A stretch of DNA of 64,000 nt. Origin: Candidatus Jettenia sp. (lineage in GTDB: Bacteria; Planctomycetota; Brocadiia; Brocadiales; Brocadiaceae). The translations under genes were made by a program, and so were the position numbers. Positions 34,348 to 64,000 of the stretch are shown in pieces. Position 1 is the first letter of the stretch; each line of letters starts with the position of its first letter. The notes below the pieces were generated by a model that searched no databases, had not been told where the DNA came from, and worked only from the letters and a program-made list of their open reading frames with translations. Where the stretch lies: NCBI GenBank assembly GCA_021650895.1, contig CP091278.1:525659-589658 (forward strand), written 5' to 3'.

Positions 34348-34587
34348 CTTATCCTTACCCACAAGTTAGGGAGGGAGCGAAGGTAGAGGCAAGGTAAACC
34401 ACGAAGTACACGAAGAAAGAAGGACGTAGAGAAGCAAGATTTTGCGCCTTTACAATTGAGGTAGGGGTGTATTGCTTCGCCTCAAGAAGGGGTCGATCAT
34501 AAAAAGAATTTATTGAGATTTGGAACTCTCTTATTCTTCGTGTACTTCGTGCTCTTTGTGGTATTTAAAGATGTGGGTAAGGACAAG
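34348..34587. mobile_element. 240-bp MITE with 9-bp target duplication, copy 2
   Basis: Ends CTTATCCTTACCCACA and TGTGGGTAAGGACAAG, flanked by TTTAGAAAA at 34339-34347 and again at 34588-34596. The target is a CCCCCTTTAGAAAAGGGGG palindrome, restored on excision. It matches 23692-23959 apart from a ~28-bp internal deletion. It lies in the hypF-hypC gap (34221-34928), which otherwise has no gene. Confidence 0.87.
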
Positions 34588-34928
34588 TTTAGAAAAGGGG
34601 GAAATCCCCTATTCCCCCCTTTGACAAGGCTTCCCGAGTTCCCTTTTCCTAAAATATCCGCCCATTTTCCCCTTTCCTGAACATCAACATAATTTTCCCC
34701 CTGGACTGTCCTTATCCATACCATTCTTACGATTCAACAGTATTTTGAGTAACTATCTAAAAAGGAATAGCTTGTATCATAAAGAGCAGAAAGGGTGAAA
34801 AGATTTTTATAAAATATGCTAATTTTTATAGTAATCATGGTTATAATCAAAGAACATACAGTATGGTAAGAAATAACAGATAAATGAGATATTCCTCAAG
34901 CCTCCTTAACAGAAAAGGAATCAACGTC

Positions 34929-35153
34929 ATGTGTCTTGGAATACCAGGAAGGATATTAGAAATCACAGGCGCAATGGCAAAGATTGATGTTGCGGGTACC
35001 AGGAAGGAAGCGAGCCTCATGCTGATGGAGAATGTTAGTGTGGGTGACTACGTAATTGTTCATGCAGGTTTTGCCATACAGAAGGTAAATGAGAAAGAGG
35101 CCTCGGAAACATTAAAGATCGTGAAAGACATCATTGGAGATGTGTCTTCATGA
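34929..35153 (+). CDS. hypC: Hydrogenase assembly chaperone HypC
   Basis: 74 residues from the ATG at 34929. This start is chosen because the family requires Cys as residue 2 (MCLGIPGRI), which binds the Fe(CN)2CO precursor with HypD. A longer reading from 34884 would bury it. The body has the OB-fold pattern VGDYVIVHAGFAIQKVNEKE. The stop overlaps the hypD start (ATGA), indicating coupling. It passes the iron-ligand unit from HypD to the hydrogenase large subunit precursor. Confidence 0.95.
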   Translation: MCLGIPGRILEITGAMAKIDVAGTRKEASLMLMENVSVGDYVIVHAGFAIQKVNEKEASETLKIVKDIIGDVSS

Positions 35154-36256
35154 AGTATATCGACGAATTCAGGCAAAGGGAAGCTGCCCAGGGGATACTG
35201 AAAAAGATCTATGCCCTATCAGGAAAAAAGGTTAATATCATGGAGATCTGTGGTACTCATACCCATGCTATATCAAAGTATGGTATAAGGAATTCGCTCC
35301 CCTCCCATATTCGCCTTATATCGGGACCTGGCTGCCCGGTATGTGTTACCTCAGCAGGGGATATAAACAGGATCATTGAATTTTGTAAAAGAGAGAAGAA
35401 TACCATTGTTGCTACCTTCGGTGATATGATGAGGGTTCCGGGAACGGAATCATCCCTTCAGGAACAAAAGGCTATGGGTAAAGATATTCGGGTGGTCTAT
35501 TCTCCATTAGGCGCCCTTGATATAGCTCTTGCAAATCCCGGAAAGGAAATAATCCTTTATGCAGTAGGCTTTGAGACCACGGTTCCGACCGTTGCAGCTA
35601 CCATCCTCCTGGCAAAAGAAAAAGGTATACAGAATTTTTCCGCCTTCACCCTTCATAAACTTACCCCTCCTGCTATGAAAGCTCTTCTGGATAGTGGTGA
35701 ACTTGATCTTCATGGTTTTCTCTGTCCTGGCCATGTAACTGCTATTATAGGGGCCAATGCTTACAAATTTCTCGCAGAAGAGTACCAAGCCCCTTGTGTA
35801 GTAGCTGGTTTTGAACCACTCGATGCCATTCACGGATTGTATATGCTGATAAAGCAACTCAAAGAGGATAGAGTTGAAATAGAGATACAATACAAAAGGG
35901 TTGTAACCTGGGAGGGTAATACAAGGGCGCAGAGGATATTGGAACAGGTTTTTGAGATATGCGATAGCAATTGGAGAGGAATTGGAAAGATACCTATGAG
36001 TGGACTCAGATTAAAGAACGAATTTGCCGATTTTGATGCAGAGAAGAAATTCGTTATCGAAGCCGGTATAGATGAGGAACCACAAGGGTGTGCTTGCGGT
36101 GATGTACTAAAAGGACTTCTCACCCCGAATCAATGTCCTCTTTTTGGTAAGATTTGTACCCCGGAATCACCCGTGGGTCCATGCATGGTGTCCTTTGAGG
36201 GAACATGTGCGGCTTATTATACCTATGGAATCTCTCAACCCATTTTGACAGGATGA
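35150..36256 (+). CDS. hypD: Hydrogenase maturation protein HypD
   Basis: 368 residues. Conserved motifs in order: EICGTHTHAISKYGIR, ISGPGCPVCVT (redox CxxC), YAVGFETTVPT, and the C-terminal [4Fe-4S] region with CACGDVLKG, CPLFGKICTPESPVGPC and GTCAAYY. HypD holds the Fe(CN)2CO unit while CN and CO are added, working with HypC and HypE. The length and all cysteine motifs are normal. It starts 4 nt before the end of hypC. Confidence 0.97.
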   Translation: MKYIDEFRQREAAQGILKKIYALSGKKVNIMEICGTHTHAISKYGIRNSLPSHIRLISGPGCPVCVTSAGDINRIIEFCKREKNTIVATFGDMMRVPGTESSLQEQKAMGKDIRVVYSPLGALDIALANPGKEIILYAVGFETTVPTVAATILLAKEKGIQNFSAFTLHKLTPPAMKALLDSGELDLHGFLCPGHVTAIIGANAYKFLAEEYQAPCVVAGFEPLDAIHGLYMLIKQLKEDRVEIEIQYKRVVTWEGNTRAQRILEQVFEICDSNWRGIGKIPMSGLRLKNEFADFDAEKKFVIEAGIDEEPQGCACGDVLKGLLTPNQCPLFGKICTPESPVGPCMVSFEGTCAAYYTYGISQPILTG

Positions 36257-36285
36257 ACAGGATACTACAGGAAAAACAATAGATT

Positions 36286-37296
36286 ATGAGGCAAGAAAGA
36301 ATCCTTTTATCACACGGAAGTGGCGGAAAGTTAAGTTATCAACTCATCCATGAGATATTTCTGAAGGCATTTCATAATGAATTTTTATCGCCACTAAACG
36401 ATCAAGCCATCTTCAATCTTCCTACTTCCAGGCTTGCTTTTACCACGGATTCTTACGTGGTAAACCCTATCTTTTTCCCCGGAGGAAATATTGGCAAACT
36501 TTCGGTATGCGGCACGATAAATGACCTTGCCGTAGGAGGAGCTGAACCTCTTTACTTAAGCGCATCTTTTATTATAGAAGAAGGTATCTTAATAGAAGAA
36601 CTAAGGATGGTGGTAGACTCCATGGCCCAAACTGCCAATCATGCAAAGGTTAAAATAATTACCGGAGATACGAAGGTCGTGGAAAGAGGTAAAGGAGATA
36701 AGCTGTTTATAAATACCAGTGGAATCGGCATAGTAAAAGACGGTATACATCTCTCACCCCTTCTCATAAGACCTGGTGATGTAATACTGGTGTCAGGACA
36801 TCTGGGCGATCATGGAATAGCTATCATGTGCCACAGGGAAGGTATTCAAATGGAATCCCCGGTTCAGAGTGATTGTGCAGCTCTCCATGAACTTGTTCAG
36901 GATGTTATATCCCGATCGCACGGAATCCGGGCAATGAGGGATCCCACCAGGGGTGGATTGGCTACCACCTTGAATGAACTGGCTGCATCTTCCGGATGCG
37001 GAATGATAATAAAAGAAGAGGATATCCCCATAAAAGAGGAAGTAAAAGGGGCTTGTGAGATATTGGGCTTTGACCCACTCTATCTCGCAAACGAAGGAAA
37101 ACTCATCGCAATAGTATCGAAAGACTCAGCCGGCACGGTGCTGGAAGCTATGAGAAAAAACCCGCTTGGGAAAGATGCTTCTATTATAGGTACTGTAGTA
37201 GGTGAGCCACGAGGCAAGGTACTCCTTGAGACCTCCATAGGCAACAGGAGAATATTGGATATGCTTTCCGGAGAACAACTTCCCAGGATATGCTGA
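36286..37296 (+). CDS. hypE: Hydrogenase maturation protein HypE
   Basis: 336 residues, AIR-synthase-like ATPase. LSHGSGGKLSYQLIHEIF is the N-terminal signature, RDPTRGGLATTLNEL and GFDPLYLANEGK are domain motifs, and the chain ends in PRIC, where the terminal Cys accepts the carbamoyl group from HypF and is dehydrated to thiocyanate. It follows hypD by 29 nt. A complete HypF-C-D-E set is therefore present; HypB is not in the window. Confidence 0.97.
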   Translation: MRQERILLSHGSGGKLSYQLIHEIFLKAFHNEFLSPLNDQAIFNLPTSRLAFTTDSYVVNPIFFPGGNIGKLSVCGTINDLAVGGAEPLYLSASFIIEEGILIEELRMVVDSMAQTANHAKVKIITGDTKVVERGKGDKLFINTSGIGIVKDGIHLSPLLIRPGDVILVSGHLGDHGIAIMCHREGIQMESPVQSDCAALHELVQDVISRSHGIRAMRDPTRGGLATTLNELAASSGCGMIIKEEDIPIKEEVKGACEILGFDPLYLANEGKLIAIVSKDSAGTVLEAMRKNPLGKDASIIGTVVGEPRGKVLLETSIGNRRILDMLSGEQLPRIC

Positions 37297-37442
37297 ACGT
37301 TTGCTATCATGAGTCAATAATTTTTGCAATTCAAACTTGAATGAAAAAGATGTTCGTTGTATTATAAACCTACCGTTTTTGTCCAATGTATACGGGAAAA
37401 TCAAACCACACATTTTAAAAAAGAAAAGGAGAAAAAGGTCGT

Positions 37443-37874
37443 ATGAGGCATGGGATATGCGGAGTTTTTATGTTATTTGTTACCTTACTATTCTGTAGTT
37501 CTCTCTATGCTAATGCTATAACACAACCGGCTGACAAGGGTGAAAAGGGATCTGATTGGTCTTACAGTTCAGTTGATAAGAAAACCCTCTATGTTGCTCA
37601 TTGGACGCATACCCCTGAGAATTGCCCTGGCAGAACCAGCGAGGGCGCAAAGATGCTGAGCATGTTCTGGGAGGGAAGAAAAAAGGCTGAAGAAAAGGGA
37701 ATAAGGATACTGGGGGCTTATGTCACCGTTACAGAGCATGACTATTTTATTATTTTTGAAGCAAGTGACTATAGTACCGCAGTAGAATTTTTTCTTCCAC
37801 TTGTACCTAGCCAAACAGGAAAAATTGTGCCTGTACTTACGATGGATGATTGGTTAAAGATAATGCCAAAGTAA
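37443..37874 (+). CDS. Exported small protein of unknown function
   Basis: 143 residues with a signal peptide (FMLFVTLLFCSSLYANA, cleaved around ANA). The mature part has a beta-alpha pattern reminiscent of small ferredoxin-fold stress/DUF3303-like proteins (TLYVAHWTHTPENCPGR... WEGRKKAEEKGIRILGAYVT... DYSTAVEFFLPLVP), but I cannot name the family with confidence. A clear ribosome binding site (AAGGAG) precedes it. It sits between hypE and the hydrogenase genes, in the same direction, so it may be cotranscribed. Confidence 0.7.
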   Translation: MRHGICGVFMLFVTLLFCSSLYANAITQPADKGEKGSDWSYSSVDKKTLYVAHWTHTPENCPGRTSEGAKMLSMFWEGRKKAEEKGIRILGAYVTVTEHDYFIIFEASDYSTAVEFFLPLVPSQTGKIVPVLTMDDWLKIMPK

Positions 37875-37917
37875 GGATTTCAGGTGATATTTTTGACAAA
37901 AACAAAAGGTGGTGTTT

Positions 37918-39069
37918 ATGATAGAACCATCGTTACAATGCGGAGATTATATTGTTCTGGAACGGAATCATTTCCAGAAATTACTTGATGCTTTAATCAG
38001 GAGTGGCTACCAGATTATAGGTCCCACACCTGGAGAAGGATCTATCATATATGGCAAGCTTAGCTCCGTTTCTGATCTGCCGATTGGGTGGACTGATGAG
38101 CAGGAAGGTGGTGTGTATCGTCTCAAAAAACGAGATGATAAAGCGCTCTTTGGATATGGAGTAGGTCCGCATTCCTGGAAAAATTTTCTCTTTCCATCAG
38201 TACAGCGCTTATGGCAGGCAAAACGCGATGGTAACGGCTTTCAAATTACAGAGGAAGATGCGGAAATACCAAAATTCGCCTTTATTGGCGCCCGCTCTTG
38301 CGATATACATGCTATCTCAATTCAAGATAAAACCTTTCTCCAGGGAAAATTTGTTGATCCTAATTATCAATCACGTCGGAAAGATATCTTTCTTGCTGCT
38401 ATCAATTGTGGAAAAGCCGGGGGTACCTGTTTCTGTGTATCAATGGGCACAGGACCCAGGGCAGACTCAGGTTTTGATATTGCCATGACGGAGATTTTAA
38501 AAAACGGCCGACATTATTTTTTAACGGAGATAGGAACAGAACGAGGCGCCGAAATCTTCCGGGAAATCCCATATAGAAAGGCAGATGAAGAAGAAAAACA
38601 CACTGCCAATACCGTTGTGGAAAAGACCGCCAGTCAAATGGGAAGATCATTGGATACCCATAACATTAAAGAGATACTCTATAGAAACTATGAGCATCCA
38701 CGTTGGGATGATGTTGCTCAGCGATGTCTGGCCTGCGCCAATTGTACCCTTGTGTGCCCTACGTGTTTCTGTGCGGCTGTTGAAGATGGAACAGATGTGA
38801 CCGGGGATTATGCCGAGCGTTGGAGGAAGTTGGATTCCTGCTTCAACCTGGATCATTCATATATTCACGGAGGGAGCATCAGGTCTTCGATAAAGTCCCG
38901 CTATCGTCAATGGCTGACGCACAAAATTGCAACATGGATTGATCAGTTCGGTACAACAGGTTGTGTCGGTTGCGGACGGTGTATTACATGGTGCCCTGTT
39001 GCAATTGATATTACAGAAGAAGCGCGGGCAATTCGTGAAAGTGATCAGGCTAATCAGCAATCACCTTAG
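37918..39069 (+). CDS. hydB: Group 3b hydrogenase iron-sulfur subunit (sulfhydrogenase beta, HydB)
   Basis: 383 residues from the ATG at 37918, chosen because AAAGGTGG lies 7 nt upstream (a GTG at 37909 overlaps that site). The C-terminal half has two [4Fe-4S] ferredoxin motifs, [16 protein letters not shown] and [23 protein letters not shown] (~165-170) is a further Cys group typical of the AsrA/HydB family. With HydG it passes electrons between the NiFe dimer and NAD(P)H or a sulfur acceptor. It heads a gene set hydB - cNMP protein - hydG - hydD - hydA. Confidence 0.9.
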
Positions 39070-39084
39070 CGAAGGAGAAAATGT

Positions 39085-39546
39085 ATGCAGACACTCGAAC
39101 AACCTTTATCAGAGCATCCGTTTCTCAAAGGACTCGATCCTCACCATATTACTTTTATTGCAGAATGTGCATCAACCATTCACTTTCATGATGGACAACC
39201 TATTTTCCGTGAAGGTGAAGCAGCAAACTATTTCTATATCATTCGCCAGGGTAAAGTAGCCATTGAACTATTTGTGCCGGAACGTGGTCCCATTATGATA
39301 CAAACGGTCGGAGATGGTGATGTTTTGGGTTGGTCATGGTTACTACCACCCCATCAATGGCGATTTGATGCACGGGCTGTTAAACCAACTGATGCGATTG
39401 TCCTTGATGGAAGATGCTTACGTTCCAAATGTGAACAAGATCATGATTTGGGCTATGAGTTGCTTAAGCGTTTTGCTGCTGTCATTGCATCGCGGTTAGA
39501 ATCAACCAGATTGCAGATTCTTGATGTCTATAGCATTCGCACATAA
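39085..39546 (+). CDS. Cyclic nucleotide-binding domain protein without DNA-binding domain
   Basis: 153 residues. One Crp-like beta-roll: DHITFIAECAST-type entry, IFREGEAANYFYIIRQGKVA, and a C-terminal helix (VLDGRCLRSKCEQDHDLGYE). It stops before a helix-turn-helix, so it is not a Crp/Fnr transcription factor by itself. Similar short cNMP-domain proteins are often embedded in group 3b hydrogenase operons. The canonical phosphate-binding arginine (RxA) is replaced by WRFDARA, possibly functional. It lies between hydB and hydG, with 15-nt and 10-nt gaps, and has a GAAGGAG site. Confidence 0.85.
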   Translation: MQTLEQPLSEHPFLKGLDPHHITFIAECASTIHFHDGQPIFREGEAANYFYIIRQGKVAIELFVPERGPIMIQTVGDGDVLGWSWLLPPHQWRFDARAVKPTDAIVLDGRCLRSKCEQDHDLGYELLKRFAAVIASRLESTRLQILDVYSIRT

Positions 39547-39556
39547 GAGGTGAACG

Positions 39557-40396
39557 ATGCGAAAGAATATTCCAGAGCCAATGTCTCCAAGCCCATTCCG
39601 CATACAACGGATGCAGAAAGAAACATACGACACGTTTACTATCGATCTTAAACCAGTAAATGGTACTGGTGATGTATCATTTGCTGCCGGACAGTTCAAT
39701 ATGCTGTATGTATTTGGAGTTGGTGAAGCCCCTATTTCCCTAAGTGGTGACCCTATCAATCCTCACCTGTATAAGCATACGGTACGTGAAGTAGGAGTAG
39801 TAACGAGGGCTATGCGCAAATTGAAACAAGGCGCGGTATTGGGAGTAAGAGGCCCGTTTGGGAGTCATTGGCCCGTAGAGAAGGCAATAGGAAAAGATGT
39901 TGTTATGGTAGCAGGAGGAATTGGATTAGCGCCACTCCGCCCTGCGATGTACCATCTTATCTCGCAACGTAATCAGTATGGAAAAATTGTCCTCCTCTAT
40001 GGCGCCAGAACACCGGAAGATATACTTTACAAACATGATTTGGAACAATGGCGGGGACGTTTTGATGTCGAAGTACAGGTTACCGTTGATAATGCCGATG
40101 GAAGTTGGCGTGGAGATGTCGGTGTCGTTACTACACTCATACGCAGAGCACAATTTAATCCTTCGCGTACTATTGCCATGATTTGCGGCCCTGAGGTAAT
40201 GATGCGATTCACCATAGCAGAGTTGCAAAATTGTGGCACTGGAGATGACAATATCTATATTTCGATGGAACGCAATATGAGATGTGGAATTGGTTTTTGC
40301 GGCCATTGTCAGTTTGGACCTGTCTTCGTATGCAAAGACGGTCCTGTATTCAACTACGGTTGTATTAAAAACTTTTTTGGAAAACGGGAGATTTAG
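39557..40396 (+). CDS. hydG: Group 3b hydrogenase FAD/NAD(P)-binding subunit (HydG)
   Basis: 279 residues. Ferredoxin-NADP reductase fold: FAD domain ~15-105 (FAAGQFNMLYVFGVGEAPIS), NAD(P) domain ~110-235 (VMVAGGIGLAPLRPAMYHL), and C-terminal [2Fe-2S] site CGIGFCGHCQFGPVFVC. It exchanges electrons with NAD(P)H on one side and HydB on the other. The stop codon TAG at 40394 lies at the edge of a repeat (ATTTAGCCACGAA) that occurs elsewhere, so the C-terminal end may be borrowed, but all motifs are intact. Confidence 0.92.
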   Translation: MRKNIPEPMSPSPFRIQRMQKETYDTFTIDLKPVNGTGDVSFAAGQFNMLYVFGVGEAPISLSGDPINPHLYKHTVREVGVVTRAMRKLKQGAVLGVRGPFGSHWPVEKAIGKDVVMVAGGIGLAPLRPAMYHLISQRNQYGKIVLLYGARTPEDILYKHDLEQWRGRFDVEVQVTVDNADGSWRGDVGVVTTLIRRAQFNPSRTIAMICGPEVMMRFTIAELQNCGTGDDNIYISMERNMRCGIGFCGHCQFGPVFVCKDGPVFNYGCIKNFFGKREI

Positions 40397-40573
40397 CCAC
40401 GAATGGACACGAATTTACACGAATAAAGGAATTTCAAAGTTTTTCATTATTTAATAAGAGAAAAGTGCATGAGAAATAGTTAGTGAAAAAAGAGTATATA
40501 TTTTTATACCCATTTTTTTATCTTCAAGTTTTTATTTGTCATTCGTGACAATTCGTGTCCATTCGTGGCTAAA
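40393..40573. repeat. ATTCGTGGCT inverted repeat inside the hydrogenase operon, copy 2
   Basis: Left arm TTAGCCACGAATGGACACGA and right arm TCGTGTCCATTCGTGGCTAA surround ~130 bp of AT-rich spacer. Same family as 24435-24503. It fills most of the hydG-hydD gap (40397-40589) and covers the hydG stop codon. Confidence 0.75.
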
Positions 40574-40589
40574 CTCATATAAATTTACT

Positions 40590-41378
40590 ATGGTTCAAAA
40601 ACGAAAACCAAAACTTGCCGTCTGGAAATTTGCATCCTGTGATGGCTGTCAGCTAACGATTCTGGACTGCGAGGATGAATTACTTACTCTAACGGATAAG
40701 GTCGATATCTCGGTCTTTCTTGAAGCTTCCCGTACCGTAAAGAAAGGCCCCTATGATATCTCCCTTGCTGAAGGGTCTATCACCACCCAGCATGATGCCG
40801 AACGCATTAAAAAGATTCGCAAGGTATCCAAACTCCTTATAGGGCTTGGCGCTTGTGCTTCAGCAGGTGGTATTCAATCATTACGCAACTTCACGAACGT
40901 GAAAGATTTTATTTCAGCCGTATATCCTTCTCCGGAATATATTGAAACACTTGATACATCAACACCGTTTTCCCGGCATGTCCATGTTGATTATGAGCTG
41001 CAGGGCTGCCCGATTAATAAACACCAGCTTCTCGATGTCATCAGCGCCTTCCTGCACGGACGGAAACCGAATACGACATCATATAGTGTTTGTATTGAAT
41101 GTAAGCGGCGTGGAAATGTTTGCGTAATGGTTGCACATGGCATCCCATGCATGGGGCCAGTAACCCATGCAGGATGTAGCGCACTCTGTCCAACCTATAA
41201 CCGGGGCTGCTATGGCTGCTACGGTCCTAAGGAAACACCTAATACAGCCTCTTTAAGTAATTGGTTTAAACGCCTTGGGGTAAATGAGGCCGATCTCGTA
41301 CGATACTTTCGCAGCTACTACGGCAATTCAGAACATTTTTATAAAGAGAGCAAAGTCCATATGAAAAAACGGAGTTGA
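40590..41378 (+). CDS. hydD: Group 3b NiFe hydrogenase small subunit (HydD)
   Basis: 262 residues from the ATG at 40590. The reading extends upstream to 40536 through the repeat and is not part of the family. [16 protein letters not shown] is the proximal cluster start, [14 protein letters not shown] and the [13 protein letters not shown] segment continue that cluster's ligands. Later Cys groups [11 protein letters not shown] and [16 protein letters not shown] would ligate additional [4Fe-4S] clusters. There is no Tat signal, as expected for a cytoplasmic group 3 enzyme. It pairs with HydA. Confidence 0.93.
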
Positions 41379-41445
41379 TGTAGGGCAAGGCTTTAGCCTT
41401 GCAGAAGGCAACCCTAAAGGGTTACCCTGCGGAATTGAAATTCCT
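41379..41445. repeat. GGCTTTAGCC/CCCTAAAGGG double-palindrome repeat between hydD and hydA
   Basis: It begins right after the hydD stop codon with TGTAGGGCAAGGCTTTAGCC and ends TACCCTGCGGAATTGAAATT. It is a shortened copy of the family at 26061, 28096 and 31634. A hairpin forming here could affect expression of the two hydrogenase subunits. Confidence 0.75.
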
Positions 41446-41469
41446 CTCTATCCAAATGAAAATTCCTCC

Positions 41470-42774
41470 ATGAAGAATGATAAGGTTAACACCAAAACGA
41501 TCAAGGTAGATTACCTGGCCCGTGTTGAGGGTGAAGGGGCTCTGTATGTAAAGATAAAAGGTAATACCGTAACAGATGTTAAATTCAAAATCTTTGAGCC
41601 TCCCCGCTTCTTTGAGGCGTTTTTACGGGGACGCAGTTTTTGTGAAGCGCCGGATATCACCGCCCGTATATGCGGTATTTGCCCGGTTGCTTACCAGATG
41701 AGCTCATCACATGCAATGGAAGATGCATTTGGTATCAGGGTTGATGGACAGCTTCGCGCACTACGCAGGCTTCTGTATTGTGGAGAGTGGATAGAGAGCC
41801 ACGCCCTCCATGTATATCTGTTACATGCGCCTGACTTTTTCGGCTATGATGATGCAATTCAAATGGCAAAAGACTATCCCGACATTGTTCAACGTGGACT
41901 GCAGTTAAAAAAAACAGGTAATGAAGTTGTTATCCTTATAGGTGGTAGAGAAATTCATCCCATAAATGTGCGAGTCGGAGGGTTTTACAAAGCATTAACG
42001 AAACAGGAACTAAATTCTCTAACGGAAAAGCTAAAAAGGGCAAGGGATATTGCCCTGGAAGCAGTAAGCTGGACGGCTAAATTTGATTACCCGGATTTTG
42101 AACAAGATTATGAATTTGTCGCCCTTCGGCATCCTGATGAGTATCCATTCAATGAAGGCAAACTTATTTCAAATAAAGGATTAGATATTTTTGTGCATGA
42201 ATATGATAATCATTTTATCGAAGAACAGGTAGCGTATACGAATGCGCTTCATTCTAAACTGAAAGAGCGTGGCGCATATTTTGTCGGTCCTCTCGCCAGA
42301 TTTAATCTGAATTTCGACCGGCTTTCTCCTTTGGCAAAAGAAGCAGCACATTCCGCAGGACTCTCGCCTGTTTGCCGGAATCCATTTAAAAGCATTATCG
42401 TGCGAAGTGTGGAGATGGTTTATGCCTGTGATGAGGCCCTCCGTATCATCGGCCAATACGAAAAACCTGAAATACCTGCAATACCCTTTCAACCAACTGC
42501 CGGTACCGGATACGGTTGTACTGAAGCGCCACGAGGCATTCTCTATCATCGTTACCGTGTTGATGACAATGGTAGAATCCTTGATGCTAAAATAGTCCCA
42601 CCAACATCACAAAATCAAAAGACCATTGAAAACGATCTTTGGCAATTTATCCCCAAATATCTGGACCTCCCTTCTGAGGAGCTCAAATATGATTGTGAAA
42701 AGGCAATACGCAACTATGATCCCTGTATCTCATGCGCTACCCATTTCTTAAAGTTCAATATTGATCGTGAATAA
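41470..42774 (+). CDS. hydA: Group 3b NiFe hydrogenase large subunit (HydA)
   Basis: 434 residues. L1 motif [20 protein letters not shown] and C-terminal L2 motif DPCISCATH supply the four Cys that hold the NiFe centre. The N-terminus [14 protein letters not shown] and [17 protein letters not shown] are large-subunit signatures. The residues after the final His (FLKFNIDRE) would be the peptide removed by the maturation protease encoded next. The pattern and subunit set point to group 3b, which is cytoplasmic, bidirectional and NAD(P)-linked. The product oxidises H2 or releases it depending on redox state. Confidence 0.93.
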
Positions 42775-55818: not shown

Positions 55819-58251
55819 TTATCTGCCATTATAGCCTGGGTAGAAATCTGGTCCCTGGATATTGTCCCATTGTGCTCCAATATCTATCCACTCGACAAAC
55901 AGGTATCTCTCATCCTGGGTCAGGAATTTGTCATGCATTACTCGTCCTTCCACTGGGAATACCTTCTCCTTCGGCTCAAACTGGCTTAACTTCTCTTCAT
56001 ACAACCTCCATATCAACAAGCTGTTAATCGCTGCTGACGGATTGACATACTTACCACCAAGATTCACATCCTTACCCCTCTGTGGCTCTAACAAACTATT
56101 GTATGCACGGCTAAAGGCCGCTACCCCATCAACACTCGCTAACTCTGCCCCTCCACTTAAATCCGGAGGATTGCTTGCATTGTGACAGTTTGCACACTTT
56201 GCATCAAGTATCGGCTGTATATCCCTTCGGAAATCCACAGTCCTTCTCTTCTCATCCGTTAACCCTTCTACCGGCTGAGATGTTGTTCCTGATGGGCCTC
56301 CATAGTATACATCCGATGGTACCACAACGTCCTCACCATGCTTTACACCCTGATAAATCCCCTGCTTATCAAACCTTAAATGCCCAAAGGCAAACGGTGA
56401 ATCATAATGGCTTCTGTCATCATACCACCAATTGTATAATGCCTTCGTATGCTGATTCTGGAATGCCCTTCCCCGATATGATCCATCATGGCATCCACTG
56501 CAAATCCTACCATGATATGGCCTCAAATATGCCCACATCAGTGCTGTCTGCACTGCCATACCCCTCTCATCCAAATTCTGAATGTAGTACGGAGTATCTG
56601 CCGTCTGAGAAGTTACCACTGAACCATCATCCTCTACATACTGATACCCAATGATCCGCCTCTGCTGGAATGCGGTTCCTGAGTTGCTGCTTGACCTGTC
56701 TCCACCCAACAGATGCTTTCCGGCTCCTACCTTGAACCTCCCTGCCTCCGGCTCAACGCATGGTACACCTTCTACGATTCTCACTGCCTTTACATCACCC
56801 GGCTTCGTTGCCTTTGCCCTCTGACTTGGATACGGACCTACTGGCACATCGGTCAGGGTTGTATCAAAACAAATCCATGTACCCCATGAGTGGGGATAAC
56901 CTTCTACCTTCACCTGGTCAAATGGCTGATAGGTAACGGTTGTTACACCAAAGTCCTTACCTGCCGTAAAGGTGTTGATCCACCTCGGCTTGTACTTTAT
57001 ATACACAGGCGCTGGCTGATGATCGTTCCACTCAGGATCATTGTGGACTACCTCGCCGGCTCTCCCGTTCTTACAATCAAACCAGTAGATGCCAAAGTCA
57101 CCTCTCTGGGCATAGGATACTAACATCCTATCATCAGGAAGTGGATACGGACTCCGGTACAATCCACCTTCATCCTTGCTCAACCTCTCATAGGTCTTGT
57201 TGAATGGAGCATCCCAGCTTACCGCTGCCAACTGACCTACACCCCAATTCATATAAGGCGACTCTACAAACACCAGCTTCCTGTCTCCGAACGTTACCTT
57301 CGACTGTGACCTGCCGCTTGATCCACCAATCTCCCCATCACAGTTCCCGTAAATCGGCCTCGGATATGCACCATCCCAGTTATCCACGCAGAGCATTACC
57401 CTACCTTTTCCCTCTGCCCTTGTACCATTCGCCTGCACGCTTGAGAAAAGGATGTTTCCATCCGGCGTTAACCATGGATCAAAGTTCGAACTCAGGTTGT
57501 AGGTTATCTGATCTATCGTTGTGTTTAAACTCGGAAACTCTATACCGGAAAGAACGTGTCCCGTAATTCTTTCGGTTACATGACCGCCCTGCGTATCCAA
57601 CCTGAACAGGTTGTATACATAGGGATTATGAAGCTCATCCCTTACACCATCCGGAGAACCTGCAAATATAATAAACCCGGTCTTCTCTACCGTACCCCTT
57701 TCTTTCCAGTCTCCTTCAAAATACCTGTCACGCCATATAACACGACCCTTTCCTTCCTCTATACTGCCAGCAGCATAGTAGATAGGAGCACGGCAGGTAC
57801 CTTTATAATCCGTCATCTGCCTGAGACCGCTTCCATCAATGTTCATCTCCCATATCTGACATCCACCACCCTTCTTGTGGATACCAGCAAAGGTAAATTT
57901 CTTCCCATCCCAATAGGTGCAGGGATCAAAGGCTGTCGCAAAATCATTCGTCAGCACCTTTAATTCCTTCGAATTTAAATCAAATAGTACGATCCGGCTT
58001 CCCTCGGGAACATAATGAGGATAGTTCTGATACGGGTCGCCCTTCTCCGTCCTCGGTGACTGGGTAAATAATATCGTATTCACCGGACCTTGTACTTCCT
58101 TTGACATACCACTGTAATCTGTCCATAAGGCCTTTCCTTGCTTCGAACCGCCAACCATTACCTGGTTGCCCGTCGCAAAGATGTCCCCACAGACCAACGC
58201 ACCAGCCACCATTGCCGATGCCATCGCTATTCCTATTCTCTTCTTACTCAT
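55819..58251 (-). CDS. hzsA: Hydrazine synthase large (alpha) subunit
   Basis: 810 residues from the ATG at 58251, chosen because AAAGGAGAAGG precedes it; a GTG at 58272 would read through that site. Signal peptide MSKKRIGIAMASAMVAGALV, cleaved near IFA-TG. The N-terminal half is a propeller-like region with ordered WTDYSG, RIVLFDLNSKELKV and YFEGDWK segments. Two heme sites are CSGCH (C584-H588) and CANCH (C686-H690). Length, heme placement and gene order match the alpha subunit of anammox hydrazine synthase (kuste2861 type). It carries the active-site hemes that condense NO-derived hydroxylamine and ammonia. Symbol naming follows hzsCBA; authors differ. Confidence 0.93.
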   Translation of the reverse strand: MSKKRIGIAMASAMVAGALVCGDIFATGNQVMVGGSKQGKALWTDYSGMSKEVQGPVNTILFTQSPRTEKGDPYQNYPHYVPEGSRIVLFDLNSKELKVLTNDFATAFDPCTYWDGKKFTFAGIHKKGGGCQIWEMNIDGSGLRQMTDYKGTCRAPIYYAAGSIEEGKGRVIWRDRYFEGDWKERGTVEKTGFIIFAGSPDGVRDELHNPYVYNLFRLDTQGGHVTERITGHVLSGIEFPSLNTTIDQITYNLSSNFDPWLTPDGNILFSSVQANGTRAEGKGRVMLCVDNWDGAYPRPIYGNCDGEIGGSSGRSQSKVTFGDRKLVFVESPYMNWGVGQLAAVSWDAPFNKTYERLSKDEGGLYRSPYPLPDDRMLVSYAQRGDFGIYWFDCKNGRAGEVVHNDPEWNDHQPAPVYIKYKPRWINTFTAGKDFGVTTVTYQPFDQVKVEGYPHSWGTWICFDTTLTDVPVGPYPSQRAKATKPGDVKAVRIVEGVPCVEPEAGRFKVGAGKHLLGGDRSSSNSGTAFQQRRIIGYQYVEDDGSVVTSQTADTPYYIQNLDERGMAVQTALMWAYLRPYHGRICSGCHDGSYRGRAFQNQHTKALYNWWYDDRSHYDSPFAFGHLRFDKQGIYQGVKHGEDVVVPSDVYYGGPSGTTSQPVEGLTDEKRRTVDFRRDIQPILDAKCANCHNASNPPDLSGGAELASVDGVAAFSRAYNSLLEPQRGKDVNLGGKYVNPSAAINSLLIWRLYEEKLSQFEPKEKVFPVEGRVMHDKFLTQDERYLFVEWIDIGAQWDNIQGPDFYPGYNGR

Positions 58252-58327
58252 CTGTTGGCCTTCTCCTTTCACTCTTTTTGAAATTATTTCCCTGTAAATC
58301 TATTCGCATCCCTTTCACTTCAGGTCC

Positions 58328-59353
58328 TTATAAAGCCTTCATGAATTCGACTAAATCTTCCAACTCCTGTTGACTCAGATGCGATGTCCTGCCGTGCATA
58401 TCTTTCTCTGTCACGCTATTGTTGATCGTATCCATCAACGTCCTTGCACTTCCATCATGGAAATAAGTCCCTGATGCATAAATGTCCCTCAAGGTCGGCG
58501 TATCAAACTCTTTTACCAGGTCTAACCCTATGATCGGGGTATCACTCTCTTCCCCATATGGATCCTCGCCAGCCTCCAATGCCTTCATGTTATAGACCTT
58601 ACCCGGTGTTGACCTGAACCCCTTTACTCCTACCCTGCCGGTTCCTACATCATGCGTCTGTGCATCACTATAGAGTGCCTTCGGATCGCTTGACTCACCA
58701 GGATGACATTCTACACATCCTATCTTCGGATCATTAAACAGCTTCTCACCCCTCTTCTGTGCCTCGGTCAAACTACCATCCGCATTCCTGAATGGACTTC
58801 CCGTAAACTCCAGTGACCGAATGTAACAGATGATTGACTCTAATCGCTCCGGTGAAAAGTTCTCACTCCTGAACACAAACCCAGGGTCTCTACCACATAC
58901 CCTATCGAGTGAACTTGTTGCCCCTACGATCTCATCCGGATGTCCCGTAAATCCCTCATGTCTGAAGGGTGGCAAATACCTACCACCACGGATATACTTC
59001 GTATTCTTCCAGCTTCCCCAACCTTCGTCTCCCAAATCCCAGATGAGTCCGGTTGTCTGACCTCTCTCATAATGACAACTCGCACATGCATACTCGCCCT
59101 GTAACCCCCATGAGGCATCGTTAAACAGGAACTGGCCGTACCTGACCAATTCACTCTTATAGGGTGAGTGCTTTACCCGATAATGCACCTCAGGCACCGT
59201 TAATGGCTCACCTCTGGGAAGTGGCTCCCACTCCGGCCCCGTCTGTATCGTCGCTATTACCTGTGGCGTCCCCGCCATTACCTCACCGGCTGTTACTACC
59301 CCCACTATCCCAAGGGCTGCAACTAATCCGATCTTTATCATTCCTTTTCTCAT
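58328..59353 (-). CDS. hzsB: Hydrazine synthase diheme (MauG/peroxidase-like) subunit
   Basis: 341 residues with a signal peptide (IGLVAALGIVGVVTAGEVMA, cleaved before GTPQV). Two heme sites: CASCH (C90-H94) and CVECH (C213-H217), in a CCP/MauG-like layout, with EFDTPTLRDIYASGTYFHDG near the C-terminus as in that superfamily. In hydrazine synthase this subunit (kuste2860 type, called gamma in the structural work) reduces NO to hydroxylamine. Strong Shine-Dalgarno AAGGAGG. Separated from hzsC by 63 nt and from hzsA by 76 nt. Confidence 0.92.
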   Translation of the reverse strand: MRKGMIKIGLVAALGIVGVVTAGEVMAGTPQVIATIQTGPEWEPLPRGEPLTVPEVHYRVKHSPYKSELVRYGQFLFNDASWGLQGEYACASCHYERGQTTGLIWDLGDEGWGSWKNTKYIRGGRYLPPFRHEGFTGHPDEIVGATSSLDRVCGRDPGFVFRSENFSPERLESIICYIRSLEFTGSPFRNADGSLTEAQKRGEKLFNDPKIGCVECHPGESSDPKALYSDAQTHDVGTGRVGVKGFRSTPGKVYNMKALEAGEDPYGEESDTPIIGLDLVKEFDTPTLRDIYASGTYFHDGSARTLMDTINNSVTEKDMHGRTSHLSQQELEDLVEFMKAL

Positions 59354-59416
59354 CTTATCACTTCCTCCTTAATATTCTGTCCTGAATTCCTCTTACCTTA
59401 TCACACTCTACAACCA

Positions 59417-60550
59417 TTAATCCACCGGCGTCTTGATTACCGATATGTTATTGGAAAAATAGTTGGCTGCATAGCAAAACTTCCCATCAGGAGACAAACA
59501 TACGGAACTAGGCCCAAGACCTACAGGCACTCTGGCCACTAAATAATCCCTTACTAATCCAAGATCATCCCTGAGATAATCAAGCTCTGCCTGGGAATTT
59601 CCCCGAACAATGCTTAGCGCCTTGTTCATATCCAATATCGTTACCCTATGCATCCCTCTTACCCCAACATACACATATCTTCCCTGAGGATCCATCGCCA
59701 GCCCATACGGATTCCCATCGTAGTTATTGAGCTCATCAAGGGGCAACCGTGCTACCTTACCACCTGGCTTGGTCTCTAACACCGCTATGTTGTTCGTAAA
59801 TACCTGTCCATTCTCTGCCTCGCATACCGGCAACCAGTTCTTCGGTGTTTCATACGTCACCACAATATACTGACCATCAGGAGTATAGACAACATCCCTT
59901 AAATTGGAACTCTCACGGATAACCCTCTTCTCGGTTACCTTCCCGCTTGCCACATCAATAAAATTCACGCTCCTGTTAATGGAACCAACCGAATCATTGA
60001 TTACTGCCAGTGTCTTTCCATCGGGCGATATATCTAATGTCCTTGGACCATAATCACTCGTATAGATAGACCGAATCTTCTCCATCCTTCCCGTATCGAT
60101 CACGTCAACCGTGTTCCACATGTTTCCGGAACATGCAACGTAAGCCGTCTTGCCGTCCTTCGAAATCTTTATACCGCTTGGCCAGTCGCCAACCTTGATC
60201 TCTTTGACAACCTGCTTCCTCGCTATATCGATCACCGATACGCTGTCGCTCTCTGCATTACATACATACAAAAACGAACCATCAGGAGTCGGCGCAGCTG
60301 CCTCAGGCTGTACCTGAACCGCAACCTCTCCAACAACCTTCCGGCTCTTGGTATCAACAAATGTAACGCTATGCCCTGACTGGTTCACCACAAATAACGT
60401 ATTCCCATCCGGTGACGTCGTGACAAAAAAAGGCGATGGCAAATCTGTCTTCACATGCGTCCCCTGTATGTACCCCGCACTGGCTACTCCTCCACCTACC
60501 ATCACCGATACCCCTATCACCAACGCACCTATCAAACCTCTTCCTTTCAT
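59417..60550 (-). CDS. hzsC: Hydrazine synthase beta-propeller subunit
   Basis: 377 residues, signal peptide (IGALVIGVSVMVGGGVASA) then a seven-blade propeller of YVTN/cytochrome cd1-like repeats: SPDGNTLFVVNQSGHSVTFV, TPDGSFLYVCNAESDSVSVI, SKDGKTAYVACSGNMWNTVD and LSPDGKFCYAANYFSNNISV. No heme motif, as known for the beta-type subunit of hydrazine synthase. A perfect AGGAGGT site precedes the ATG by 6-7 nt. First gene of the three-gene operon. The product probably organises the dimer of trimers and may carry a regulatory role. Confidence 0.92.
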   Translation of the reverse strand: MKGRGLIGALVIGVSVMVGGGVASAGYIQGTHVKTDLPSPFFVTTSPDGNTLFVVNQSGHSVTFVDTKSRKVVGEVAVQVQPEAAAPTPDGSFLYVCNAESDSVSVIDIARKQVVKEIKVGDWPSGIKISKDGKTAYVACSGNMWNTVDVIDTGRMEKIRSIYTSDYGPRTLDISPDGKTLAVINDSVGSINRSVNFIDVASGKVTEKRVIRESSNLRDVVYTPDGQYIVVTYETPKNWLPVCEAENGQVFTNNIAVLETKPGGKVARLPLDELNNYDGNPYGLAMDPQGRYVYVGVRGMHRVTILDMNKALSIVRGNSQAELDYLRDDLGLVRDYLVARVPVGLGPSSVCLSPDGKFCYAANYFSNNISVIKTPVD

Positions 60551-60600
60551 CCGCTACCTCCTAATACAGTTAAGCTATAGCTACAAAATATAAAATACAA

Positions 60601-61146
60601 CTACTTACTAACATGTGGACAAGTACCAGATTTAGTACAAACTATTTCAAGAGGTACACCACAAGTTTCACAATCGCCAGATTTCTCAATTTGAGGTGCA
60701 TATCTTCCTTTAATAGTCGTGAAACCTTTACCTGGCTCTGGGTTTTCTTTACCACATTTAGAACATTTAAATAAAGTCCTTGACCAAACCTTTTTACTGG
60801 TAATATCATCACCACATTCATCGCAAGCACCAGGAGCAGGTAAACACACACCATATTTCTTACAATTGGTATTAACGCAACTGTATGCAATTTTTTGGCA
60901 TGCCCAACATGTTGGTAGATCAGTATGCGTCTTATCTCCTTCAGCACGGTGCTTTGCAAAATCCCAAATATACCCTATTTCGGAACACTCATTAAACTCC
61001 CGAACATCTTTGCACGCATCACACCAGTATGCTTCTAAGATCTGTCTTTTATCACAAGGTTTATCCCATGCGGCAAAAACAGATTGAGTTATAGAAACAA
61101 ATATACATAACATACCAGTTGCAAAATAAAGGCCCTTCTTAACCAT
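60601..61146 (-). CDS. Secreted cysteine-rich protein directly upstream of hydrazine synthase
   Basis: 181 residues with a signal peptide (YFATGMLCIFVSITQSVFA, cleaved before AWDKP). The mature chain has about 22 Cys, many as CxxC or CxxxC pairs: CDACKD, CWACQK, CVNTNCKKYGVC, CDECGDD, CSKCGK, CETCGVP and CTKSGTC. They look like stacked zinc-ribbon/rubredoxin knuckles rather than hemes, since no CxxCH exists. GAAAGGGGAT precedes the ATG. The gene is 50 nt upstream of hzsC and co-directional, so it may help assemble or protect the synthase (for example metal or disulfide handling). I recognise no family. Confidence 0.85.
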   Translation of the reverse strand: MVKKGLYFATGMLCIFVSITQSVFAAWDKPCDKRQILEAYWCDACKDVREFNECSEIGYIWDFAKHRAEGDKTHTDLPTCWACQKIAYSCVNTNCKKYGVCLPAPGACDECGDDITSKKVWSRTLFKCSKCGKENPEPGKGFTTIKGRYAPQIEKSGDCETCGVPLEIVCTKSGTCPHVSK

Positions 61147-61205: not shown

Positions 61206-61223
61206 TAGCATAATCTATACCAA
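61206..61223 (-). promoter_or_regulatory. Candidate sigma54 promoter (GG-N10-GC) upstream of the Cys-rich gene
   Basis: On the minus strand TTGGTATAGATTATGCTA has GG and GC separated by ten bases, the hallmark -24/-12 spacing, but only partial match elsewhere to TGGCAC-N5-TTGC. Its predicted start would be ~50 nt before the Cys-rich ORF. Its neighbour upstream encodes a sigma54 activator, which supports but does not prove it. Confidence 0.35.
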
Positions 61224-61439
61224 ATAAAAACATATAAGCTAACACTACATAAACTACCCATTTTGAACATATTAGAACTATATGTTATCTTATATTATAT
61301 ACTTTCTTAGCCTGAAAATATGGCTGTAATCATCCAATATATTAGGATTGATTTCTAATATTCAGTATCTAATAAAGTTCTTATTTGGAATTCTACAGTT
61401 TCAAAGAGCAGTTACCAAAATGGTTGTTATCAACCATTA

Positions 61440-62834
61440 CTAATTTGACAAACCGTACTTTTGTAATCTATACCGGAATGTTCCTCTTGTTAACCCTAAT
61501 AGTTTAGCAGCTTTTGTCTTATTATTTTTACTCTTTTCAAGTGCCTGCGTTACTAATTGTTTTTCTAAAGCATCCAGAGATAAACCATGAGGAGGAATAT
61601 CAAATTGAACAGTGGTATTATCTGATGTTTGGAACTTATCTTTTGCAGGGAAATATGACCCTCTAATAAGAGATGTTGGTAGATGTTCAGGCATGATTAC
61701 ATTACTTTTACAGAGAATCACCGCTCTTTCAATAGCATTTTGCAATTCTCTAATATTACCTTCCCATTTATGCTGGATAAGGAGTTTTTCTACTTCTTTA
61801 CTTAGAGAAATCGGCGCTTTCCCCATTTTTATTGAAAAACGTCTCAAAAAGTGTTTGCTTAATGGAATAATATCTTCGGTTCTTTCTCTTAATGGTAATA
61901 AGGTAATTGGAAAGACGCTTATTCGATAATATAAATCCTCTCGAAATTTACCGAGCCGCACCAAATCCTCCAGGTTTTTATTGGTAGCACAAATAATCCG
62001 AATATCAACTTTAATTGTCTCGGTACCGCCAAGGCGTTCTAATTCTTTAGACTCAATAATACGCAATACTTTCGCCTGGATGGCTGCACTCATTTCCGAT
62101 ATTTCATCCAAAAAGAAAGTGCCGCCGGCAGCTAGCTCAAAACGCCCCTTTTTAGTCTTTTCAGCACTGGTGAATGCACCCTTCTCATATCCGAATAATT
62201 CACTCTCAAGTAAATTTTCAGGTATCGCAGCGCAATTCAACGTAATGAGAGGTCCTCCGGCTCTGTTACTATTGTAGTGAATTGCACGTGCAATTAACTC
62301 TTTTCCCGTGCCACTTTCTCCGGTAATTAATACTGTTGAATCAGTCTTGGATACTTCTCCAACCAGCCTCAAAGCATCAGTAACTGCTGGAGAATTACCA
62401 ATGATATTTGAGAAATTATATTGAGACTCGAGTGCCTGACGTAAGTTTTTATTCTCAATAGCTAAACTACTCATACGCAAGGCCCTCTTTACCGCGAGCT
62501 TAAGTATCTCATTCTCAAAAGGAGTTGTAAGATAATCAAACACTCCTTCTTTCATTACATCAATTACTGATTCTACGGAACCGTATGCGGATAAAACGAT
62601 GATAGGAAGGTCAGGTGTTTTGCTTTTAATTGCTCTTAAAAACTCAAGCCTTCCCACTTCTTGTACTTTCAGATCTGTAATTAATAGATGAAAACGCTCT
62701 TTGTCTAAATAATCCATAGTTGTTACATAATCACTTGAAGTAACAACTTTTACATCTCTCATTTCATCAAAGACCATGGCAAGCACTCTTCTCATACGCT
62801 CTTCGTCATCTGCAATTAAAATTCTGTAAGTCAT
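61440..62834 (-). CDS. Sigma54-dependent response regulator (NtrC family)
   Basis: 464 residues. Receiver domain ~1-118 (ILIADDEERMRRVLAMVFDE, phosphoacceptor Asp in LLITDLKV, Ser/Lys switch IIVLSAYGS and FDYLTTPF, where the usual Lys is Thr). AAA+ domain ~140-370 with Walker A GESGTGKE, GAFTSAEK (sigma54 contact), Walker B FFLDEISEM and RIICATNK. A Fis-type helix-turn-helix closes the chain (AKLLGLTRGTFRYRLQKYGL). The conserved receiver Lys being replaced by Thr in PF context is unusual. It lies 290 bp upstream of the Cys-rich gene, in the same direction as hzs. Confidence 0.93.
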   Translation of the reverse strand: MTYRILIADDEERMRRVLAMVFDEMRDVKVVTSSDYVTTMDYLDKERFHLLITDLKVQEVGRLEFLRAIKSKTPDLPIIVLSAYGSVESVIDVMKEGVFDYLTTPFENEILKLAVKRALRMSSLAIENKNLRQALESQYNFSNIIGNSPAVTDALRLVGEVSKTDSTVLITGESGTGKELIARAIHYNSNRAGGPLITLNCAAIPENLLESELFGYEKGAFTSAEKTKKGRFELAAGGTFFLDEISEMSAAIQAKVLRIIESKELERLGGTETIKVDIRIICATNKNLEDLVRLGKFREDLYYRISVFPITLLPLRERTEDIIPLSKHFLRRFSIKMGKAPISLSKEVEKLLIQHKWEGNIRELQNAIERAVILCKSNVIMPEHLPTSLIRGSYFPAKDKFQTSDNTTVQFDIPPHGLSLDALEKQLVTQALEKSKNNKTKAAKLLGLTRGTFRYRLQKYGLSN

Positions 62835-62942: not shown

Positions 62943-63791
62943 TCATAAAGCCCAAACAAGAAGTGCTGAGAACATAAGGCCTGTCACTATAAGTCCGGTA
63001 ATCAAAATGGGAACCGCAAAAAGCCTGGTTAGAAAACTTACAAAAAGGGATGACGGGGCCACCTTTAAATTCTCTAATTGCTGCTGTTTTTCAAGTCTGT
63101 TAAACTGGTTTAAGCGTTCATGTTTAAATTCTTCTTCAGTTATTTTCCCGGTAAAAATAGATTCATCAACTGGCATTTTTTCAGGAAGCAAGTGAGTATG
63201 GAAAAAGTGAATAGTGAAAATAAATCCAGCAGCGAGGATAGCTTCGTATCGATGAATAATCAGCGCTATACTGGGAAGGTCTATAATACTTGCAACAGAA
63301 ACAGGGATAATTTTGGTGAATTGCACTGGGAACCAAAGAATTAACCCAGTAACAGCCATCACAAGCGTACCCCACATAAGCGACAGATATTCAAACTTCT
63401 CCCAGTATATCCATCTATCAAAATTCGGGCGCTTGCCAAGACCGAGAAACCACTTTACATCTCCAATGATATCAAAGATATCTCTTGGCTGTATAAGCAA
63501 GGAGTTTGGCCCCCAAAAGAAACCTTTTTTCTTTTGGACAGAAACGTTATAAAAAAGATAGATAAAATGGATAAATGCTGCAAAAAATGTAACCAAAGCA
63601 CAAATCCTATGGATGAATCCCGCTGTTGGATATCCTCCTAATAGCTCATATAGCCATCTTGCCCAATCATAGCCTCTAAATGCCAGAGGCATTCCTGTCA
63701 AAACAAGGCCAAAGAAACTAATAATAATTAAAAAATGGCAAAATCTATGTAAAAGACCAAATCGTAAATAATTAATGTTGCTCTTCATCAT
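62943..63791 (-). CDS. Membrane cytochrome b (thiosulfate reductase/formate dehydrogenase gamma-like)
   Basis: 282 residues from the ATG at 63791 (AAAGGGG site; a TTG at 63827 lies inside the previous gene). Four to five membrane helices carry paired His ligands: LLHRFCHFLIIISFFGLVL, FIHRICALVTFFAAFIHFIY, and LIIHRYEAILAAGFIFTIHF. This is a diheme cytochrome b fold that shuttles quinol electrons to a periplasmic or anammoxosomal partner. The upstream partial gene overlaps its start. In anammox models membrane cytochromes feed electrons to hydrazine synthesis, and the gene order fits that, as inference. Confidence 0.87.
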   Translation of the reverse strand: MMKSNINYLRFGLLHRFCHFLIIISFFGLVLTGMPLAFRGYDWARWLYELLGGYPTAGFIHRICALVTFFAAFIHFIYLFYNVSVQKKKGFFWGPNSLLIQPRDIFDIIGDVKWFLGLGKRPNFDRWIYWEKFEYLSLMWGTLVMAVTGLILWFPVQFTKIIPVSVASIIDLPSIALIIHRYEAILAAGFIFTIHFFHTHLLPEKMPVDESIFTGKITEEEFKHERLNQFNRLEKQQQLENLKVAPSSLFVSFLTRLFAVPILITGLIVTGLMFSALLVWAL

Positions 63792-64000
63792 GCCCCTTTC
63801 TCTTGCATTCGTCTCTAACAGTTGCAAACCAAGTCAGTAAGGAATGGAGTCCGAAAGAAGAAAATGTAAACGCCAATATCCCTACGTACATCACAAACAC
63901 TATACATAAAATTGTTTGTGGATTCATAAGAACTTTTTTAAAATTTTCCGGATCATTACGCGCGTTCTTTAATGCTACCATCAGTTTCGTATAATAATTT
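63772..64000 (-). CDS. C-terminal end of a membrane protein, partial (5' end outside window)
   Basis: The frame is open at the window edge (continuing upstream of the ATG at 63981). The visible ~75 residues have one membrane helix (TILCIVFVMYVGILAFTFSS) and end KGHDEEQH. It could be the anchor end of a multiheme cytochrome partner of the cytochrome b, with which it overlaps by ~20 nt, but no heme motif is in the visible part. Confidence 0.6.
   Translation of the reverse strand, partial: NYYTKLMVALKNARNDPENFKKVLMNPQTILCIVFVMYVGILAFTFSSFGLHSLLTWFATVRDECKRKGHDEEQH

What the first reader, a model, noticed from the sequence alone, without database searches (positions are those of the whole stretch)
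55819..60550. Complete hydrazine synthase operon (hzsC-hzsB-hzsA)
Three consecutive secreted proteins match the propeller, diheme and large subunits, each with its own strong ribosome binding site and correct heme counts (0, 2, 2). This enzyme makes hydrazine and is diagnostic of anammox. Sequence shows the motifs and order; the family identity is established knowledge of Kuenenia kuste2859-2861.
Basis: partly seen in the sequence, partly recalled or inferred. Interest (0 to 1): 0.85.

Follow-up and report, generated by a model that had tools for sequence, protein, structure and literature searches.

The report
Duplicated hydrazine synthase operon, anammox bacterium
These are the genes for hydrazine synthase, the signature enzyme of anammox bacteria, complete and with every checked active-site residue; the operon is one of two almost identical copies in the genome, which seem to have been kept identical by recombination across the whole family and to be switched on by two different regulators.

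Summary
The observation and the reading are right. On the minus strand lie the beta-propeller, diheme and large subunits of hydrazine synthase (HZS). They match the three chains of the Kuenenia HZS crystal structure end to end. Every active-site residue I checked is conserved: alpha C303, H587, Y591, H689, H772; gamma C102, C105, H106, H144, C165, D168. HzsA matches occur only in the anammox order. One correction: hzsA starts at the ATG at 58251, not the GTG at 58272. The enzyme is well known.

Beyond the finding, this is one of two copies in a complete Jettenia genome: a 4.9-kb cassette, 99.96% identical, running from the first ribosome-binding site to the 3' stem-loop. In seven near-complete family genomes the two copies differ at 0-0.9% of four-fold sites, against 43-62% between genomes, and the flanking genes are shared across genera. 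This fits an old duplication homogenised by gene conversion. Flanks are swapped in some genomes, which indicates crossing-over between copies. Each locus has its own sigma-54-type promoter, dyads and adjacent NtrC-type activator gene. The identical copies, and their loss from short-read bins, were already published; I found no paper on the concerted evolution or the two promoters.

The parts
59417..60550 (-). HZS beta subunit (seven-bladed propeller, no heme; kuste2859 orthologue; hzsC or hzsB depending on the paper)
   Evidence: E 1.1e-202 to 5C2V chain B; loop 245-260 conserved; SD AGGAGG before the ATG
58328..59353 (-). HZS gamma subunit (diheme, CCP/MauG-like; kuste2860 orthologue)
   Evidence: E 2.9e-198 to 5C2V chain C; C102, C105, H106, H144, C165, D168 conserved
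55819..58251 (-). hzsA, HZS alpha subunit (start re-assigned to the ATG at 58251; kuste2861 orthologue)
   Evidence: E 0, 1599 bits to 5C2V chain A; Pfam HZS_alpha; C303, H587, Y591, H689, H772 conserved; stop upstream of this ATG in Kuenenia relatives
55669..60563 (-). Cassette repeated elsewhere in the genome at G000:C1:1876315-1881210 (4,896 aligned bases, 1 mismatch, 1 indel)
   Evidence: block edges compared in seven genomes
55695..55734 (-). 3' stem-loop (AAGAGCTGGGT...ACCCAGCTCTT) inside the cassette, probable transcript end
   Evidence: fold of the 3' region; same hairpin in seven Brocadiaceae genomes with a U-A to C-G pair change
60601..61146 (-). Secreted Cys-rich protein of unknown function (kuste2858 orthologue), 50 bp upstream of the operon
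   Evidence: no Pfam match
61207..61223 (-). Sigma-54 type -24/-12 element TTGGTATAGATTATGCT upstream of the kuste2858 orthologue and the operon
   Evidence: aligned in 7 of 7 Brocadiaceae genomes; 1 match in the window against 0.01 expected
61321..61336 (-). Dyad TGGATGATTACAGCCA, candidate activator site
61421..61436 (-). Dyad TGGTTGATAACAACCA, candidate activator site
61440..62834 (-). NtrC-type sigma-54 response regulator (kuste2857 orthologue), variant GAFTSA loop
   Evidence: Pfam Sigma54_activat 7.5e-71, Response_reg, HTH_8; motif check
62943..63827 (-). Membrane cytochrome b (kuste2856-type) of the electron transfer module; the multiheme and small cytochromes follow beyond the window edge
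54576..55601 (-). Downstream flank of this locus: DUF1573 protein
53204..54559 (-). Downstream flank of this locus: secreted protein with a C-terminal cytochrome c554 domain

Best explanation
This is a complete, functional-looking hydrazine synthase operon of a Candidatus Jettenia anammox bacterium. By established knowledge of the orthologous enzyme, heme gamma-I reduces NO to hydroxylamine, which passes through a tunnel gated by the propeller subunit to the tyrosine-ligated, zinc-bordered heme alpha-I, where it condenses with ammonium to hydrazine. The operon is one of two loci formed by an old duplication of an RBS-to-terminator cassette in the ancestor of the family. Recombination between the copies (gene conversion, sometimes crossing-over) has kept them identical, while each locus keeps its own sigma-54 promoter and adjacent NtrC-type activator. 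Shown: identity, residues, duplication, shared flanks, synonymous homogeneity, conserved promoter-like elements. Inferred: catalysis, gene conversion as the process, promoter use.
For: Full-length matches to 5C2V chains. All checked ligands conserved. HzsA confined to the anammox order. Second copy 99.96% identical over 4,896 bp. Pairs 99.7-100% identical over about 4.8-4.95 kb in seven genomes, with edges 13-23 bp before the first ATG in six of seven and 108-185 bp after the hzsA stop. Four-fold sites differ by 0-0.9% within and 43-62% between genomes; each genome's two copies pair in the tree. Flanking genes orthologous across genera, with downstream flanks exchanged between genomes. Sigma-54-like sites in 7 of 7 locus-A and 6 of 6 locus-B leaders; one rpoN in the genome.
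Against: No activity, expression or binding data. The second copy carries a 1-base insertion in a homopolymer that breaks hzsA; it could be a sequencing error or a real defect. The promoter patterns were tuned on the aligned sites, so the shuffle figures are optimistic; with the published consensus alone, 8-65 of 500 shuffles reach the score at locus A and 0-37 of 500 at locus B. The locus-A activator has GAFTSA instead of GAFTGA. In Kuenenia (G020) the locus-B regulator no longer lies beside hzs.
Confidence: 0.9

Rival explanations
1. A related heme complex of the HZS-like clades I-IV (non-anammox homologues) with another function.
For: Such homologues exist in other Planctomycetota and Desulfobacterota (PMC12758564); parts of the diheme and propeller subunits match generic CCP/MauG and lactonase-type families.
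Against: The homologues lack Tyr591, Ser590, Cys303 and His772 equivalents, have Trp at the gamma His144 position and fused beta-gamma subunits (PMC12758564). Here all those residues are present, the subunits are separate and identity to the Kuenenia enzyme is about 79-85%.
Confidence: 0.01
2. The two copies are identical because each genome duplicated the operon recently and independently, not by gene conversion.
For: Near-zero divergence within genomes is also what a recent duplication gives; Kuenenia carries an extra partial copy, so duplication does recur (PMC5854607).
Against: The same flanking genes border the copies in several genera, and the upstream edge lies 13-23 bp before the ATG in six of seven genomes. 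Independent insertions would have to hit the same two sites each time.
Confidence: 0.08
3. The second copy is an assembly artefact of a 4.9-kb repeat.
For: Genomes come from enrichments, and the Jettenia relative G016 has a contig ending inside the repeat neighbourhood.
Against: Single-contig genomes G000, G004, G020 and G022 each hold copies in distinct, unrelated flanks; 17 of 17 fragmented drafts with the kuste2858 gene break within 1.5 kb of it, as a true repeat would cause; PMC5854607 and PMC7648391 found two copies with long reads.
Confidence: 0.03
4. The two loci are a simple gene-dose device with no separate regulation; the promoter-like elements are incidental or not used differently.
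For: Gene dose was proposed in PMC5854607; [quoted passage not shown]
Against: The GG-N10-GC elements and dyads are aligned across genera in otherwise little-conserved leaders, upstream of the operon and beside sigma-54 activator genes at both loci.
Confidence: 0.3

Closest known systems
Hydrazine synthase of Kuenenia stuttgartiensis (kuste2859-2861; PDB 5C2V/5C2W)
   Same: Three subunits in the same order, same heme motifs, all checked active-site ligands, same upstream module kuste2854-2858
   Different: About 79-85% amino-acid identity; alpha Y588 is D here (CHYGSY to CHDGSY); downstream flanks differ
Two-copy hzs of K. stuttgartiensis MBR1 and Ca. Brocadia H1_AMX1 (PMC5854607, PMC7648391)
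   Same: Two practically identical hzs clusters per genome
   Different: Here the edges, shared flanks, flank exchange and synonymous homogeneity were measured across several genera, and promoters were compared
NtrC-type sigma-54 control modules
   Same: Activator gene beside the target, GG-N10-GC promoter element and upstream dyads
   Different: Two different modules each drive a copy of the same operon; one activator has GAFTSA; none tested experimentally

Membership tests
Hydrazine synthase (HZS) | Three subunits homologous along their length to the solved enzyme, beta-gamma-alpha gene order | tested here: met
Hydrazine synthase (HZS) | Heme alpha-I site: CXXCH His587 (zinc), Cys303 (zinc), Tyr591 (iron) | tested here: met
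   residue roles from PMC12758564 and PMC12607021
Hydrazine synthase (HZS) | Heme alpha-II bis-His site including His772 | tested here: met
Hydrazine synthase (HZS) | Heme gamma-I: Cys102, Cys105, His106, third thioether Cys165, His144, Asp168 | tested here: met
Hydrazine synthase (HZS) | Propeller loop 245-260 near the tunnel with Mg-binding Glu | tested here: inconclusive
   loop sequence conserved; the exact Glu number was not given in the text read
Hydrazine synthase (HZS) | Restricted to anammox bacteria | tested here: met
   18 of 294 phylum genomes, all in the anammox order
Hydrazine synthase (HZS) | Makes hydrazine from NO and ammonium | not testable with these tools
   needs the purified complex
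Concerted evolution by gene conversion | Paralogues at loci shared across lineages, more alike within than between genomes at synonymous sites | tested here: met
Sigma-54 promoter with NtrC-type activator | GG-N10-GC element, upstream dyads, adjacent activator gene, rpoN in genome | tested here: met
Sigma-54 promoter with NtrC-type activator | Transcription start at the site and dependence on the activator | not testable with these tools
   needs start-site mapping and binding assays

The most novel reading that the evidence does not exclude
The key catabolic operon of a whole bacterial family is kept as two sequence-identical copies by continuing gene conversion since before its genera split, with conversion confined to an RBS-to-terminator cassette, so that one protein complex is placed under two independently evolving sigma-54 switches (kuste2857-type and a separate kinase-regulator pair). 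The copies also act as recombination sites that swap the flanks.
Probability: 0.55. Interest if true: 0.5.

Novelty: new member of a known kind. Interest (0 to 1): 0.35.

Why it matters
The operon is the accepted marker of anammox and the enzyme is known, so the finding as given is ordinary. What adds value is a testable account of why anammox genomes carry two identical hzs copies: either dose or two separately controlled promoters. Because the copies differ only in their leaders, leader-specific probes can measure each one, which transcriptomics could not (PMC7438415). It also explains at family scale why hzs is often missing from otherwise complete draft genomes.

Tried and rejected
A strict sigma-54 consensus search in the window found nothing near the operon; the weaker locus-A element only appeared in the cross-species alignment. 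A first tree and four-fold count mis-set the codons of the Kuenenia-like rows because of a stop before the true hzsA start and was redone. A first locus-B pattern had the wrong spacing and found 0 of 6; corrected. The AlphaFold model of the Cys-rich neighbour is poor (mean pLDDT 45.7), so no fold search was made. An unoccupied second site was sought in outgroups through the locus-B regulator and the c554 protein: in the one outgroup with a close regulator relative (G035) the two genes are on different contigs, so the empty site was not shown. Rfam gave nothing in 50-64 kb.

Full report
What is there. The minus strand of 55819-60550 holds three intact ORFs: 377 aa without heme motif, 341 aa with two CXXCH motifs, and 817 aa with two. 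phmmer against solved structures returns the three chains of Kuenenia stuttgartiensis hydrazine synthase 5C2V as best match for each, along the whole mature protein (E 1.1e-202, 2.9e-198 and 0). Pfam finds HZS_alpha in the large subunit. hzsA should start at the ATG at 58251: AAGGAG stands at the proper distance before it, and Kuenenia relatives have a stop codon between the GTG and this start.

Active site. Numbered as in the Kuenenia protein, alpha C303, H587, Y591, H689 and H772 are conserved, as are gamma C102, C105, H106, H144, C165 and D168. These are the residues described for the zinc and tyrosine-ligated heme alpha-I, the bis-His heme alpha-II and the heme gamma-I site (PMC12758564; PMC12607021). 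The non-anammox homologues described in PMC12758564 lack several of them. HzsA matches at E <= 1e-20 occur in 18 of 294 sampled genomes of the phylum, all in the anammox order.

Organism and neighbourhood. The window lies in a complete, single-contig 3.82-Mb genome. Its HzsA is 97% identical to that of Candidatus Jettenia ecosi, whose genome is in the same genus by the tool's kinship. The genes upstream (small cytochrome, multiheme cytochrome, cytochrome b, sigma-54 regulator, Cys-rich protein) correspond to kuste2854-2858, the electron transfer module and regulator of the Kuenenia hzs cluster (PMC12053348; PMC6423088).

A second copy. The genome holds a second hzs operon at 1.88 Mb: 4,896 aligned bases with one mismatch and one single-base indel in a homopolymer, which breaks hzsA of that copy into two frames. 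Whether that indel is real cannot be told without reads. The repeat covers window 55669-60563, from the first ribosome-binding site to just past the 3' stem-loop. Two identical copies were reported before for Kuenenia MBR1 (PMC5854607), Brocadia H1_AMX1 (PMC7648391) and Brocadiaceae at large (PMC12758564).

Concerted evolution. In seven near-complete family genomes the copies are 99.7-100% identical over about 4.8-4.95 kb. The block begins 13-23 bp before the first matched codon of the propeller gene in six of seven (96 bp in G024) and ends 108-185 bp after hzsA. Four-fold degenerate sites differ by 0-0.9% within genomes and 43-62% between them, and the tree joins the two copies of each genome (for this genome the frameshifted second hzsA was left out of the count). 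Yet both loci have the same flanking genes across genera: cytochrome module, regulator and Cys-rich gene upstream, or a kinase-regulator pair upstream; DUF1573-c554-galT-glgA downstream, or octaheme HAO-like protein-trpB-trpA-HAO-like protein downstream. So the duplication is most simply older than these genera and the copies have been homogenised. Single-copy outgroups (L015, L018, L022) have the cytochrome module upstream and the HAO-trp group downstream. G004 and G006 have this arrangement plus kinase-regulator-hzs-DUF1573; G000, G010 and G022 have the downstream flanks exchanged. On the tree this needs about three exchanges by parsimony (counted by hand), which suggests crossing-over between copies. 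Inversion through inverted copies explains an exchange, but same-strand copies in G000, G010 and G022 need further rearrangement, and an inversion error in an assembly cannot be excluded in single cases.

Draft genomes. Of 17 fragmented family genomes that hold the Cys-rich gene, all end the contig within 1.5 kb downstream of it, 14 within 240 bp; several drafts lack hzsA although rated 99% complete, and the J. ecosi, B. sapporoensis and K. hertensis contigs are 4.87-4.89 kb, the size of the cassette. Loss of the hzs contig in binning was noted for one Brocadia genome (PMC7648391); this shows it across the family.

Regulation. Aligned leaders show a GG-N10-GC element at each locus: TTGGTAT-N4-TDTGCT before the Cys-rich gene in 7 of 7 genomes at locus A, and GGYAY-N5-TTGC between the regulator gene and hzs in 6 of 6 at locus B. 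In this genome they lie at window 61207-61223 and at L026 11412-11426. Dyads lie upstream: TGGNTGATNACARCCA twice at locus A and TGACCATNNATRGTC twice at locus B, each with about 0.01 or fewer expected by chance. One rpoN is present. The locus-A regulator has receiver, sigma-54 activator and Fis-type domains; the locus-B regulator has GAFTGA, the locus-A one GAFTSA. The patterns were shaped on the sites, so chance figures are optimistic; scored by the published consensus alone the sites are only moderately rare. I found no paper on hzs promoters or gene conversion in anammox; the library holds open-licence papers only.

Cys-rich neighbour. The kuste2858 orthologue is secreted-looking, has 14 cysteines invariant from Scalindua to Jettenia, and strong matches only in the anammox order. 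It is in the proteome table of PMC6423088 as an unknown protein. A role in HZS maturation is a guess; the structure model was too poor to help.

Verdict. The finding is confirmed and the enzyme is known. The duplicated, homogenised cassette with two sigma-54-type leaders is the part worth following.

Noticed in passing
L026:8050-8120 (G000:C1 about 1878055): The second hzsA copy has one extra T in a homopolymer that splits the frame; error or real defect unknown.
   Followed up: partly
window 60601-61146: Secreted Cys-rich kuste2858 orthologue, conserved and confined to anammox bacteria, no known family; a candidate HZS maturation or zinc factor.
   Followed up: partly
window 61440-62834: The sigma-54 regulator next to this operon has GAFTSA in place of GAFTGA.
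   Followed up: partly
window 31800-42774: [NiFe] hydrogenase large-subunit homologue with hypF and hypD and a ferredoxin-type subunit, perhaps the type 3b hydrogenase reported in Kuenenia MBR1.
   Followed up: no
window 1177-21454: Exopolysaccharide cluster: several glycosyltransferases, flippase, O-antigen ligase-like and sugar transferase genes.
   Followed up: no
L026:155-6070: At the second hzs locus two octaheme HAO-like genes flank trpB and trpA, an order kept in Brocadiaceae and largely in outgroups.
   Followed up: partly
window 55695-55734: 3' stem-loop of the operon conserved in seven family genomes with a compensatory pair change.
   Followed up: partly
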